A stretch of DNA of 28,609 nucleotides, taken from a virus. Below are positions 15,541-20,567 of this stretch, piece by piece. The notes below the pieces were generated by a model that ran no database searches, was not told where the DNA came from, and saw only the letters and a program-made list of their open reading frames with translations. A program made the translations under genes and the position numbers. The first letter of the stretch is position 1, and every line of letters starts with the position of its first letter. The stretch spans positions 1 to 28,609 of IMG/VR virus record IMGVR_UViG_3300043773_000810; one strand, written 5' to 3'.

Positions 15541-15581
15541 GTGCACCGTACGAACCAACCAACGACGTTAGGACAAGATCA

Positions 15582-15788
15582 ATGTTTGTGCCCGGTACAC
15601 GTGTCTACGACCGAGTGACAGCCGAAACCTACGGCACTAGGTACTACGGCACGGTTGTAGCTGTGCAACAGCCGTCACGGTTTGCGCCTATGGTGGAGTC
15701 GGTAACGGTTGAATGGGATTGCGACGGTTGGACCGACTACCGTCCGACTGATGACGTCTATACTGACGTGCTCGGTATCGTGGCTTGA
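15582..15788 (+). CDS. Small beta-rich protein, first right-arm gene
   Basis: 68 residues (MFVPGTRVYDRVTAETYGTRYYGTVVAVQQ...). The opening 'PGTRVYDRV...YGTVV' and later 'VTVEWDCDGWTDYRPTDDV' resemble small SH3-like barrel proteins that begin with 'GTRV' and use short strands. AGGA precedes the ATG by about nine bases. The stop codon TGA is part of the next promoter's TTGACA. Function unknown. Confidence 0.75.
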   Translation: MFVPGTRVYDRVTAETYGTRYYGTVVAVQQPSRFAPMVESVTVEWDCDGWTDYRPTDDVYTDVLGIVA

Positions 15789-17840: not shown

Positions 17841-17948
17841 TAAGGTTTGATTCGTTTGGTCGGTTTAAGGCTTGATTCGCCGGCGGTCTAAGGTTTGAAA
17901 CGTCACAATGACAAAACGGTAAGGCATGATTTAGTGGGAGGTTTGGAT
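17841..17948 (+). repeat. Non-coding array of TAAGG-TTGA motifs
   Basis: TAAGGTTTGA at 17841, TAAGGCTTGA at 17866, TAAGGTTTGA at 17889, TAAGGCATGA at about 17921, then GGGAGGTTTGGATATG at the start of the next gene. The copies match the stop/ribosome-site module seen at later gene junctions but here have no genes between them. Confidence 0.6.
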
Positions 17949-18185
17949 ATGGTTACGGTTAAAGGTTTGAAGCGGTTTAACGGTATCGCGGGACAATACG
18001 GTTACCGGGCTACGGTGCAGTATGCCGGCGAACCGGATAGCGTGGTTTCGTTCATCGGTAGCGTTTACGGTGGCCCGGTTGTCATGGTTACAGATACTGG
18101 TATGCAGACGTTTGTTACAGAACCGGATAGGTTTGGTTCGTTTGGCCCGGATTGGGTTAGACGGTTTTTCGGTGATCTGGCTTGA
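17949..18185 (+). CDS. Small beta-rich protein
   Basis: 78 residues from ATG at 17949, preceded by GGGAGG (an upstream in-frame start at 17895 lacks a ribosome site). MVTVKGLKRFNGIAGQYGYRATVQYAGEPDSVVSFIGSVYGGPVVMVTDTGMQTFVTEPDRFGSFGPDWVRRFFGDLA. It appears to be a small barrel followed by a short helix. The final 'GPDWVRRFFGDLA' is amphipathic. The stop TGA is part of the next promoter. Function unknown. Confidence 0.75.
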   Translation: MVTVKGLKRFNGIAGQYGYRATVQYAGEPDSVVSFIGSVYGGPVVMVTDTGMQTFVTEPDRFGSFGPDWVRRFFGDLA

Positions 18186-18210
18186 CAATGGGTAGTGTTT
18201 CGCGTATCAT
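18181..18210 (+). promoter_or_regulatory. Promoter/operator for the nine-gene cluster
   Basis: CTTGACAATGGGTAG with TTGACA (18182-18187), 17-bp spacer, TATCAT (18205-18210). It lies 42 bases before the first of a run of tiny genes that share stop/Shine-Dalgarno modules, so it probably drives them all. Confidence 0.8.
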
Positions 18211-18252
18211 GAACAGGCACCGGCTACGGCAGCTATTAGAAAGGTTTGAAAA

Positions 18253-18369
18253 ATGATTATGTGTGAGGGCTGTAACAGGCCAATTGGAGAGCATCCGGGT
18301 CCGTGGCGTTGCGATAGCCCGCCATTGGCACATTGGGAAATTGAACTGTTGAATGATTGGGAGGTTTGA
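18253..18369 (+). CDS. Zinc-ribbon-like microprotein
   Basis: 38 residues: MIMCEGCNRPIGEHPGPWRC, DSPPLAHWEIELLNDWEV. CEGC, then H14 and C20, then H27 suggest a zinc knuckle. It follows AAAGGTTTGAAAA and itself ends in GAGGTTTGA (Glu-Val-stop), which forms the ribosome site for the next gene two bases later. The arrangement on both sides supports that it is real. Function unknown. Confidence 0.7.
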   Translation: MIMCEGCNRPIGEHPGPWRCDSPPLAHWEIELLNDWEV

Positions 18370-18371
18370 GG

Positions 18372-18569
18372 ATGTTTAACGAAAACAAAGGTATCGCAGA
18401 CGCCTTCCGGCTTGGGTTTGATGAGGGCTATGAATCCCCATTTGGTTGCGACGTAGGTATGACCTACGACGATGACCCTGACTCCCCTAGGAGTGTTGCT
18501 TATGATATGGGGCTAAATCATGGTGAGGCATCTTGGTTTAACGATAACAATTACTGGAAAGAGGTTTGA
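18372..18569 (+). CDS. Unknown small protein of the AGGTTTGA cluster
   Basis: 65 residues from ATG at 18372, seven bases after GGGAGG. MFNENKGIADAFRLGFDEGYESPFGCDVGMTYDDDPDSPRSVAYDMGLNHGEASWFNDNNYWKEV. The 'DAFRLGFDEGYE...AYDMGLNHGE' pattern (G-x-D/N-x-G-x-E twice) recalls small phage proteins with paired 'GY.xG' repeats. It ends Lys-Glu-Val-stop with the stop in GAGGTTTGA. Confidence 0.75.
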   Translation: MFNENKGIADAFRLGFDEGYESPFGCDVGMTYDDDPDSPRSVAYDMGLNHGEASWFNDNNYWKEV

Positions 18570-18570
18570 A

Positions 18571-18783
18571 GTGGACACTAAGCAAGCAAGAGAGTTAGCC
18601 GCCCAATACGCCGGCGACTACGTTCCAGATATCCGGGCGTTCGCATTAGGCGCTAGGGTTTCGTATGAGAGCTTTGTCGCGCAGCTTGACATTGTGGCAT
18701 CAGAGTATGGTTTCGATAGCTTTGATGATGTTGAGTCGTTGCGCGACTACGCCGGCGAAACGCTTGACGCGGTGTGGAAATAG
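18571..18783 (+). CDS. Unknown small acidic helical protein
   Basis: 70 residues from GTG at 18571, after GAGGTTTGAA. MDTKQARELAAQYAGDYVPDIRAFALGARVSYESFVAQLDIVASEYGFDSFDDVESLRDYAGETLDAVWK. All helical. It contains an internal operator-like sequence (CTTGACATTGTGGCA, 18685-18699). Unlike its neighbours it ends with TAG-type spacing: the stop precedes a new GGGAGGTTTGA instead of sharing it. Confidence 0.75.
   Translation: MDTKQARELAAQYAGDYVPDIRAFALGARVSYESFVAQLDIVASEYGFDSFDDVESLRDYAGETLDAVWK
18685..18699 (+). promoter_or_regulatory. Intragenic operator-like site
   Basis: CTTGACATTGTGGCA inside the 18571 gene, same orientation as the others. No -10 at 16-18 bp. It fits a stoperator but could be chance, since it encodes Leu-Asp-Ile-Val. 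Confidence 0.4.
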
Positions 18784-18799
18784 GGAGGTTTGAGCATTT

Positions 18800-19090
18800 A
18801 TGCGACGTTGCTCTAAGCGTTGGCTTGACGAGGATTGCCCGGAAGGTGTTGTCGCAATAATCGACAATCCAGCTTTTACCGATAGATACACCATTATTTA
18901 CAACTATGTAAACGATGGTCATGTTACATATCTGGGCACTAACTCTAGTGGCAGTTTTTCCGGGCACGGTTTCATGCAGACGCATGAGGTATCTGCATAT
19001 CGGTATCGGGAAAAGAATCGGTATATCCGATGGTCTGATTTACCGGATACGGTCAAAGCTATGGTTCGTTCTGATTTGGGAAAGGTTTGA
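18800..19090 (+). CDS. Unknown small protein
   Basis: 96 residues from ATG at 18800, after GGGAGGTTTGAGCATTT. MRRCSKRWLDEDCPEGVVAIIDNPAFTDRYTIIYNYVNDGHVTYLGTNSSGSFSGHGFMQTHEVSAYRYREKNRYIRWSDLPDTVKAMVRSDLGKV. The core 'DRYTIIYNY...GHVTYLGTNSSGSFSGHGFMQTHEVSAYRYR....IRWSDLP..V' is typical of small phage/plasmid-type proteins of unknown function that end in 'I.W.DLP..V'. It ends Gly-Lys-Val with stop inside AAAGGTTTGA. Confidence 0.8.
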   Translation: MRRCSKRWLDEDCPEGVVAIIDNPAFTDRYTIIYNYVNDGHVTYLGTNSSGSFSGHGFMQTHEVSAYRYREKNRYIRWSDLPDTVKAMVRSDLGKV

Positions 19091-19094
19091 ATCT

Positions 19095-19262
19095 ATGAGG
19101 CAATACCGTGGTGTGACCATCGACAGGGTACCTGGTAGTGGATACTACAAAGCTTTTCCGGAGTGTTCTACAGATCATCCTAGTCATTATGTGCCTCTAA
19201 TGGCAGACACGGAGGCTTTGACTACTGCTAAGCGTGAATTGTCCGAATTGGGAAAGGTTTGA
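19095..19262 (+). CDS. Unknown small protein
   Basis: 55 residues from ATG at 19095, after AAAGGTTTGAATCT (the open frame to the left overlaps the previous gene and is rejected). MRQYRGVTIDRVPGSGYYKAFPECSTDHPSHYVPLMADTEALTTAKRELSELGKV. It starts with a small beta unit ('YRGVTIDRVPGSGYYKA') and ends with a helix that repeats the same Gly-Lys-Val-stop as its neighbour. Similar short 'Y.G..I..V..SGYY.A' proteins occur in actinophages, usually assigned no function. Confidence 0.75.
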   Translation: MRQYRGVTIDRVPGSGYYKAFPECSTDHPSHYVPLMADTEALTTAKRELSELGKV

Positions 19263-19265
19263 GAA

Positions 19266-19538
19266 TTGAAAGACACAGCATTAGCAATCATCGGGCTTAA
19301 CTCACTCTCCGAGGAACTGTGGAGTGTTGACGACGACCGAGCATTTGAGTACGAGCTACAGCTTCAAGAGAAAGCTGTCCAGCTAGCTTTAGAGGTTATG
19401 GATTTTAACCCGCTAGAAGGGCACACAAGGCTTGGGGAGGTCCGGGCATACGCTCACCGTAACGGTATTTGTGTGCATGAGGCGATTATTCGTCTGGTTA
19501 ATTCCGCGTTGTCGCATCAGCTTGATAGAGAGGTTTGA
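19266..19538 (+). CDS. Unknown helical protein
   Basis: 90 residues from TTG at 19266, after AAAGGTTTGAGAA. MKDTALAIIGLNSLSEELWSVDDDRAFEYELQLQEKAVQLALEVMDFNPLEGHTRLGEVRAYAHRNGICVHEAIIRLVNSALSHQLDREV. Fully helical; the C-terminal third (GEVRAYAHRNGICVHEAIIRLVNSALSHQ) resembles a ribbon-helix-helix or small HTH, but this is not certain. Ends Glu-Val with stop inside GAGGTTTGA. Confidence 0.75.
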   Translation: MKDTALAIIGLNSLSEELWSVDDDRAFEYELQLQEKAVQLALEVMDFNPLEGHTRLGEVRAYAHRNGICVHEAIIRLVNSALSHQLDREV

Positions 19539-19540
19539 GA

Positions 19541-19825
19541 ATGTTTACAACAAAGCTTTGGGCTGAGGTAGGTATCTGGAATCATGGCGAGCCGGCGTTG
19601 CTCATCATGAAGGGGATTTACGACGACGAATACGAGAACCAGATAGACGATATCTCTGTTCTCCATGACGTAGATTTGGTGTTTCCTGACGGGTACGACC
19701 AGCAGCTTGACGACATGCTTGGTTTGCCTTGGGAGGAACCTTTAGCGGCGTTGGGTTACCGACGTGTGAGCAGCCGGCACGATTACACACCTTATTCCGC
19801 AGCTTTCGATATCAAGGAGGTTTGA
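19541..19825 (+). CDS. Unknown acidic protein
   Basis: 94 residues from ATG at 19541, after GAGGTTTGAGA. MFTTKLWAEVGIWNHGEPALLIMKGIYDDEYENQIDDISVLHDVDLVFPDGYDQQLDDMLGLPWEEPLAALGYRRVSSRHDYTPYSAAFDIKEV. Mixed alpha/beta with many Asp residues in the middle (residues 28-60). No recognised motif. Ends Lys-Glu-Val with stop inside GGAGGTTTGA. Confidence 0.75.
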   Translation: MFTTKLWAEVGIWNHGEPALLIMKGIYDDEYENQIDDISVLHDVDLVFPDGYDQQLDDMLGLPWEEPLAALGYRRVSSRHDYTPYSAAFDIKEV

Positions 19826-19829
19826 CACC

Positions 19830-19994
19830 TTGGCATTGCGCTACCGCATCGGGGATGACATCATCGACCCCGCATTCCTACCACACCACGTCAAAGGCAC
19901 CGTCACCGCTTTAGCGCACGGCATGGTCCGGGTACACTGGCACATGGCAGACGACTACGAATGGCTGCCAGTAACCGATATCACAAAGCTTTGA
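19830..19994 (+). CDS. Small barrel-like protein, last of the cluster
   Basis: 54 residues from TTG at 19830: MALRYRIGDDIIDPAFLPHH, VKGTVTALAHGMVRVHWHMADDYEWLPVTDITKL. The form 'RIGD.I.D......KGTVTAL..GMVRVHW....EWLPVTDI.K' is typical of small SH3-like/KOW-like barrels. GGAGGTTTGA of the previous gene provides its ribosome site. Here the stop TGA is followed directly by the promoter of the repressor gene (TGAATTGACA). Confidence 0.7.
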   Translation: MALRYRIGDDIIDPAFLPHHVKGTVTALAHGMVRVHWHMADDYEWLPVTDITKL

Positions 19995-20069: not shown

Positions 20070-20567
20070 ATGATGGAACAGACACCTGAGTTATCACTAG
20101 CTCTAATAGAAGCCTTGAAGAACCAAGGATACACACAATCAGAGATTGCACGCATGTTCGGCAAGACACGACAAGCTGTCTCGTGGCACAAGCGCACCTA
20201 CGGTGGAAGTCTCACGCCTCGTGAGGAAGCTTTGAAACACTATCCGTGGCAGGTTTCCCACCCGCAAACCCAAACGACCGCCTACAGGGCATCTAGGGAC
20301 CACTGCGAGTACATGGCTACCGGCGGCAAAGGCATGACAGTCCGAGAACTAGGCCGGCTGCGGAACTTCTACCGCAAGATTCAAGAAGGTTTCGTGTTGG
20401 AACATGACCCGAACATTCCCCCGGAGCCGGGGGTCAACAAGTACGGAGGTTTCGCTTGGCGTAAACGCCGGAAGTCCGATGGAGACTTGATAATCCGGGT
20501 GAACCAGTACACGACGTTGACCGATGAGGGCCGCATGTTGTGGAGGCTGCCGCCCGATTTACCTTAA
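20070..20567 (+). CDS. Immunity repressor (L5 gp71 family)
   Basis: 165 residues. The N-terminal helix-turn-helix is YTQSEIARMFGKTRQAVSWHKRTYGG (residues 21-46). The C-terminal domain has the family signature: 'RDHCEYMATGGKGM' then 'LRNFYRKIQEGFVLEHDPNIPPEPGV..YGGFAWRKR' and 'DGDLIIRVNQYTTLTDEGRMLWRLPPD'. I recognise this as the cluster A immunity repressor family. Members bind one early operator and many scattered asymmetric 'stoperator' sites that halt transcription. It is monocistronic with its own promoter. The operator-like sites across this window are the probable targets. Confidence 0.93.
   Translation: MMEQTPELSLALIEALKNQGYTQSEIARMFGKTRQAVSWHKRTYGGSLTPREEALKHYPWQVSHPQTQTTAYRASRDHCEYMATGGKGMTVRELGRLRNFYRKIQEGFVLEHDPNIPPEPGVNKYGGFAWRKRRKSDGDLIIRVNQYTTLTDEGRMLWRLPPDLP

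What the first reader, a model, noticed from the sequence alone, without database searches (positions are those of the whole stretch)
18240..19830. Repeated stop/Shine-Dalgarno module (GGAGGTTTGA) links nine tiny genes
Seen: consecutive genes from 18253 to 19830 start 1-10 bases after (G/A)(A/G)AGGTTTGA. In most, GAGGTTTGA or AAGGTTTGA is also the last codons and stop of the upstream gene, so unrelated proteins all end Glu-Val or Lys-Val. A variant precedes the 12555 gene (GGGAGGTTTTGA), the 17949 gene and ends the 25877 gene. This recalls the start-associated sequences of other mycobacteriophage groups but has a different sequence and contains the stop. Inference: a conserved boundary that keeps translation coupled while letting genes be swapped.
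Basis: partly seen in the sequence, partly recalled or inferred. Interest (0 to 1): 0.78.

Follow-up and report, generated by a model that had tools for sequence, protein, structure and literature searches.

The report
Stop-plus-ribosome-site seams between swappable phage genes
In a family of uncultivated relatives of well-known mycobacteriophages, a run of tiny early genes is joined by the same eight-letter seam, which holds the stop signal of one gene and the ribosome-binding site of the next, and comparison of close relatives shows single genes gained, lost and exchanged at these seams.

Summary
AGGTTTGA occurs 16 times in the window against 0.87 expected. It ends 1-6 nt before all eight consecutive small genes from 18253 to 19830 and does not recur upstream of 23 other early genes. 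In six of the eight its TGA is the upstream gene's stop. The window is a fragment of an uncultivated cluster-A-like phage. Uncultivated relatives (53-58% G+C) carry up to 14 copies; cultured cluster A relatives carry 0-1 on the coding strand. Among close relatives, genes are gained, lost and replaced with crossovers at the motif: one 230-bp single-gene cassette is present or absent between GGAGGTTTGATTGTG repeats, each form in two contigs. Of 19 distinct content-switch junctions in the arrays, 9 lie within 12 nt of an exact copy (2.3 expected). However, junctions fall at gene boundaries elsewhere too, and given a boundary the motif adds no measurable excess. The motif is shown to mark exchange points, not to cause exchange. 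Best reading: a start-associated sequence (SAS-like) with a built-in stop, serving coupled translation and giving interchangeable seams. It is a new variant of a known kind; coupling and recombination are inferred.

The parts
18182..18210 (+). Promoter-like site TTGACA-17-TATCAT heading the array (Pleft-like by position)
   Evidence: 11 of 12 consensus matches; position upstream of the small-gene operon; function not tested
18242..18249 (+). Motif copy 1 (GAAAGGTTTGA), upstream of gene 18253; no gene ends here
18253..18369 (+). Small gene 1, 38 aa, no relative found
18362..18369 (+). Motif copy 2 (GGGAGGTTTGA), stop of gene 18253 and SD of gene 18372
18372..18569 (+). Small gene 2, 65 aa, no relative found
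18562..18569 (+). Motif copy 3 (AGAGGTTTGA), stop of gene 18372 and SD of gene 18571
18571..18783 (+). Small gene 3, 70 aa, GTG start, ends in TAG just before motif copy 4
18786..18793 (+). Motif copy 4 (GGGAGGTTTGA), SD of gene 18800; stop not used by the upstream gene
18800..19090 (+). Small gene 4, 96 aa, phrog_4496 (unknown function, E 3e-24)
19083..19090 (+). Motif copy 5 (GAAAGGTTTGA), stop of 18800 and SD of 19095
19095..19262 (+). Small gene 5, 55 aa; the ORF containing it clusters with one in relative L004
19255..19262 (+). Motif copy 6 (GAAAGGTTTGA), stop of 19095 and SD of 19266
19266..19538 (+). Small gene 6 ('KD' family), TTG start, 90 aa; relatives in L004, L010, L015, L017 with different downstream neighbours
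19531..19538 (+). Motif copy 7 (GAGAGGTTTGA), stop of 19266 and SD of 19541
19541..19825 (+). Small gene 7 ('F7' family), 94 aa; in five lineages with five different upstream neighbours
19818..19825 (+). Motif copy 8 (AAGGAGGTTTGA), stop of 19541 and SD of 19830
19830..19994 (+). Small gene 8, 54 aa, TTG start; its family usually precedes the repressor in relatives
17939..17946 (+). One-base variant AGGTTTGG upstream of gene 17949
17843..17970 (+). Cluster of further copies (17843, 17891, 17963) and variants (AGGCTTGA at 17868, AAGGCATGA near 17923), mostly outside genes; possible scars of lost cassettes
20070..20567 (+). Cluster-A-type immunity repressor, end of the array (landmark)

Best explanation
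AGGTTTGA is a start-associated boundary element of the early operon upstream of the repressor in a clade of uncultivated cluster-A-like actinobacteriophages. Its RRAGG part is the Shine-Dalgarno sequence of the next gene and its in-frame TGA is usually the stop of the previous gene, so a terminating ribosome is left on the SD a few bases before the next start (inferred coupling). Because every seam carries the same 8-15 bp, joining any two cassettes at the motif restores both the upstream stop and the downstream RBS. Content switches among relatives fall at these seams (shown). Whether the shared sequence also guides the crossover as short homology is inferred and not separable from selection for intact genes.
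For: Enrichment. Upstream of 8 of 8 array genes and not a recurrent 8-mer upstream of 23 other early genes of the same genome, so not simply this phage's general SD. In relatives 70% of distinct copies have a start codon opening an ORF of 28 or more codons within 16 nt (32% for other TGAs), and 45% have both that and an open upstream frame (9%). Clade-specific, early coding strand. Cassette gain/loss and replacement at the motif. 9 of 19 distinct junctions at exact copies versus 2.3 expected; with a colinearity filter 8 of 16 versus 2.1 (p 5e-4), and 7 of 13 versus 1.7 with matches of at least 100 bp. The F7 gene keeps exact upstream motif copies in 4 of 5 lineages and downstream copies in 5 of 5, although its neighbours differ. 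Motif identity at aligned boundaries 0.93 versus 0.83 in flanks.
Against: Junctions cluster at gene boundaries everywhere, including boundaries without the motif (41 of 56 after the repressor). Within arrays roughly 6 of 10 boundaries carry an exact copy and 9 of 16 boundary junctions do, so there is no excess given a boundary. One 497-bp deletion used a gene-internal GCGCAGAGAT repeat. Gene-internal copies, and the copy before the conserved exonuclease gene, were not seen as switch points. If either of the two compared sequences may carry the motif, the null is weaker (9 of 16 versus 4.0, p 8e-3). No expression data; the clade is uncultivated and its host unknown.
Confidence: 0.66

Rival explanations
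1. It is only a strong SD followed by a convenient stop; small early genes happen to share it by common ancestry and drift, and exchanges land there merely because gene boundaries are the tolerated places.
For: RRAGG fits anti-SD pairing in two registers (GGAGG and GAAAGG) with normal spacing; boundary junctions are equally common without the motif.
Against: TTTGA cannot pair with the anti-SD yet is invariant at eight non-homologous seams and conserved above flanks in relatives; the same genome does not use it before its other early genes.
Confidence: 0.2
2. It is a binding site for a phage or host RNA- or DNA-binding protein that regulates early genes, with the SD overlap incidental, as was considered for cluster K SAS/ESAS.
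For: Strict sequence, one orientation, confined mainly to one operon.
Against: Very short, asymmetric, positioned exactly as an RBS with an in-frame stop; no linked inverted-repeat element was noticed.
Confidence: 0.08
3. The array arose by duplication of one ancestral gene with its upstream region, so the motif is shared by descent.
For: All copies are close together and in one orientation.
Against: Neighbouring proteins did not fall into one family; flanks of the motif differ in length and sequence.
Confidence: 0.04
4. The gene-content differences are metagenome assembly errors at short repeats.
For: All relatives with dense copies are metagenomic contigs.
Against: The main alternative structures appear in at least two contigs from different metagenomes (F4-F10 in L017 and L021; F4-F5-F10 in L023 and L024; F5-F7 in L009, L010 and L013), and repeats of 8-15 bp are shorter than usual assembly k-mers (general knowledge).
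Confidence: 0.02

Closest known systems
Start-Associated Sequences (SAS) of cluster K mycobacteriophages, GGGATAGGAGCCC (PMC3203893)
   Same: Short, asymmetric, one orientation, 10-20 copies, only among non-structural genes, at the RBS position within a few nt of starts, more conserved than an SD needs, in front of unrelated genes; an upstream stop codon sometimes lies inside.
   Different: Different sequence; no ESAS inverted repeats noticed; here the stop is used at six of eight seams; copies sit at every seam of one dense array; junction association is clear here (7 of 13 versus 1.7 expected with matches of at least 100 bp) but not significant for SAS under a strict filter (4 of 113 versus 2.1).
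SAS of cluster EF Microbacterium phages, GGGAAAGGACCCC (PMC7302621)
   Same: Same kind of position and over-conservation.
   Different: Different sequence and host group; linked to ESAS; no link to gene exchange reported in the passages read.
Promoter early stem-loops (PeSLs) of T4-type phages (Arbiol 2010, Comeau 2014, as cited in PMC4503421)
   Same: A repeated regulatory element between small early genes associated with shuffling of those genes.
   Different: PeSLs are promoter plus terminator hairpin acting on transcription; this element is an 8-bp stop plus SD acting on translation.
Short conserved boundary sequences proposed for phage mosaicism (discussed in PMC3029335)
   Same: Homology limited to gene boundaries joins unrelated modules.
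   [quoted passage not shown] here they can.
Cluster A stoperators
   Same: Repeated short sites in the same phage group, often near gene starts.
   Different: Stoperators (TTGACA-containing, repressor-bound) are a separate repeat in the same genomes, concerned with transcription.

Membership tests
Start-Associated Sequences (as a kind) | Many near-identical copies, one orientation, in the non-structural region | tested here: met
   14 + strand copies, 2 on the other strand
Start-Associated Sequences (as a kind) | Located a few nt upstream of start codons at the RBS position | tested here: met
   1-6 nt from the motif end to the start at eight genes
Start-Associated Sequences (as a kind) | Conservation beyond what 16S pairing needs | tested here: met
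   TTTGA invariant at eight seams
Cluster K SAS proper | Consensus GGGATAGGAGCCC within two mismatches | tested here: not met
   The consensus here is RRAGGTTTGA
Cluster K SAS proper | About half of sites with 17-bp ESAS inverted repeats upstream | not tested
   No systematic inverted-repeat search was run; none was noticed in the sequences read
Recombination boundary sequence | Module junctions fall at the sequence more often than chance | tested here: met
Recombination boundary sequence | Excess over other gene boundaries | tested here: inconclusive
   no excess once position at a gene boundary is conditioned on; few motif-free boundaries in arrays
Translational coupling element | Downstream translation depends on upstream termination | not testable with these tools
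   anatomy only

The most novel reading that the evidence does not exclude
The motif is itself the exchange substrate: phage recombination (an exonuclease of the phrog_69 type lies just downstream) joins single-gene cassettes through 8-15 bp of seam homology, making an array of interchangeable genes whose seam repairs stop and RBS automatically, comparable to a gene-cassette array without an integrase.
Probability: 0.27. Interest if true: 0.78.

Novelty: new variant of a known kind. Interest (0 to 1): 0.6.

Why it matters
Phage genomes are mosaic, but shared sequences at mosaic joints are usually not found (PMC3029335). Here a defined seam recurs between unrelated small genes, and close relatives show clean one-gene gains, losses and swaps at it. 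It gives start-associated sequences, whose role is unknown, a testable second role, and supplies natural pairs for measuring whether short RBS-stop homology drives gene shuffling.

Tried and rejected
An SD-only reading was weakened by 8 of 8 array genes versus no recurrence upstream of 23 other genes. Paralogous amplification was rejected. Cluster K SAS as a comparison for junction use: the apparent excess (20 of 141) partly came from repeat-to-repeat alignments and was not significant after colinearity and length filters. The two cassette proteins tested (window 19541, L010 4093) had no tblastn match in 50,697 phage records. Host search via the helicase found only distant prophage-like loci in Mycolicibacterium, Nocardia, Amycolatopsis, Streptomyces and others; the host stays unknown. 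A window-repressor scan of viral contigs found nothing.

Full report
What the window is. The record is a 28,609-bp IMG/VR fragment. Capsid, scaffold, protease, portal, terminase and lysin genes lie on the minus strand, and a cluster-A-type repressor (phrog_357, up to 62% identical to cultured cluster A repressors), exonuclease, DnaB-like helicase, endonuclease VII, primase and metallophosphoesterase on the plus strand. DNA similarity of the 17-25 kb region to cultured phages is, among the records listed, limited to a stretch of the helicase at about 72%.

The observation. AGGTTTGA is 18-fold over-represented (16 versus 0.87) and ends 1-6 nt before eight consecutive small genes (18253 to 19830). 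It is in 8 of 8 of these upstream regions; no 8-mer recurs more than twice upstream of the other 23 early genes of the same genome that were tested. In six cases its TGA is the upstream stop, in the frame GAG/AAG-GTT-TGA, which explains the Glu-Val and Lys-Val endings. Eight, not nine, genes follow an exact copy; 17949 follows AGGTTTGG. A promoter-like site, TTGACA-17-TATCAT, precedes the array.

Distribution. Uncultivated relatives found through the helicase and through the F7 gene (window 19541) carry up to 14 copies in 5-15 kb, nearly all on the early coding strand, where about 0.2 is expected. Cultured cluster A phages of 60-65% G+C carry 0 or 1 on the coding strand in about 20 kb. In ten representative relatives (the window included), 66 distinct copies were scored: 70% have a start codon opening an ORF of at least 28 codons within 16 nt and 45% have both this and an open upstream frame, against 32% and 9% for other TGAs of the same regions. 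Some copies are inside genes, for example in a LNKGLRD-encoding stretch and in the exonuclease.

Gene gain, loss and exchange. Splitting the arrays at the motif gives cassettes whose order differs between close relatives. L023 and L024 have F4-F5-F10 while L017 and L021 have F4-F10: a 230-bp, one-gene difference between GGAGGTTTGATTGTG repeats with the flanks otherwise nearly identical (one mismatch over the compared stretch). L009, L010 and L013 have F5 followed by F7 instead of F10, identical up to the last base of the motif and unrelated after it. L023 has two motif copies 14 bp apart where L010 and L017 carry two or three genes. At the protein level F7 occurs in five lineages with five different upstream neighbours; an exact motif precedes it in four and follows it in all five. 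The window's KD gene (19266) family is followed by F7, F4, F4b or another gene, with a motif in between.

Statistics and their limit. Nineteen distinct content-switch junctions were found within arrays; nine lie within 12 nt of an exact AGGT[T/A]TGA versus 2.3 expected (p about 2e-4). With colinear matches only it is 8 of 16 versus 2.1. The motif is also better conserved (0.93) than its flanks (0.83) at 42 non-independent aligned boundaries. But junctions favour gene boundaries in general: 16 of 19 in arrays, and 41 of 56 after the repressor where none of them is at the motif. About 6 of 10 array boundaries carry an exact copy (read), so given a boundary there is no visible excess. One array deletion joined GCGCAGAGAT repeats inside genes. 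The data therefore show that the motif marks where genes are exchanged; they do not show that it causes exchange.

Mechanism. Shown: position, stop usage, enrichment, clade restriction, and exchange at the seams. Inferred from established translation biology: GGAGG or GAAAGG pairs with the 16S 3' end in two registers, TTTGA fills the spacer, and a ribosome that terminates at TGA is placed to reinitiate 1-6 nt downstream. Inferred: short identity between seams can seed recombination, and any product joined within the seam is automatically a working gene pair.

Comparison with known systems. In kind it matches the Start-Associated Sequences of cluster K (PMC3203893) and cluster EF (PMC7302621), but not in sequence, so it is filed as SAS-like, not as a cluster K SAS. 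Applying the same junction test to nine cluster K phages gave no significant association under a strict filter (4 of 113 versus 2.1). T4 PeSLs are the nearest parallel for shuffling by a repeated regulatory element (cited in PMC4503421). PMC3029335 notes that boundary sequences are usually missing at mosaic joints.

Verdict. A real, unusual and well-bounded feature: a new variant of start-associated sequence, with exchange of single genes at it documented by comparison, and its causal roles open.

Noticed in passing
relatives after the repressor gene, e.g. L010:8153-8166, L019:2471-2481, L017:5406, L015:3512: 19 of 56 distinct gene-content junctions downstream of the repressor lie at TTGACA stoperator-like repeats (1.3 expected), e.g. 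ACTTGACAAT; several are at the same two places, so they are not all independent. Repressor-binding repeats may also be exchange points.
   Followed up: partly
window 17843-17970; L023:2941-2962; L035:1880-1913: Closely spaced or degenerate motif copies with no gene between them, resembling scars left by lost cassettes.
   Followed up: no
window about 15563-15582: Left-arm genes (minus strand) and right-arm genes (plus strand) diverge here, in the order expected if the two ends of a cluster-A-like genome are joined; the contig probably spans the joined ends.
   Followed up: no
L004 and L002, upstream of the repressor: A sister variant, AAAGGTATGAG (9 AGGTATGA copies in L004), is used beside AGGTTTGA.
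   Followed up: partly
L031, L032, L045, L056 (e.g. L031:3307-3330): In another related group some exchanges occur at GCTAACAGGAGGT, a TAA stop followed by an SD, suggesting a different stop-plus-SD seam; only 1-2 copies per contig.
   Followed up: partly
L007 (phage Phranny) right arm: Stoperators CTTGACAGAGAAC lie directly before several gene starts in this cultured cluster A phage.
   Followed up: no
L010:3493/3981 versus L014:5302-5312: A 497-bp deletion between GCGCAGAGAT repeats inside genes: array deletions also occur without the motif.
   Followed up: yes
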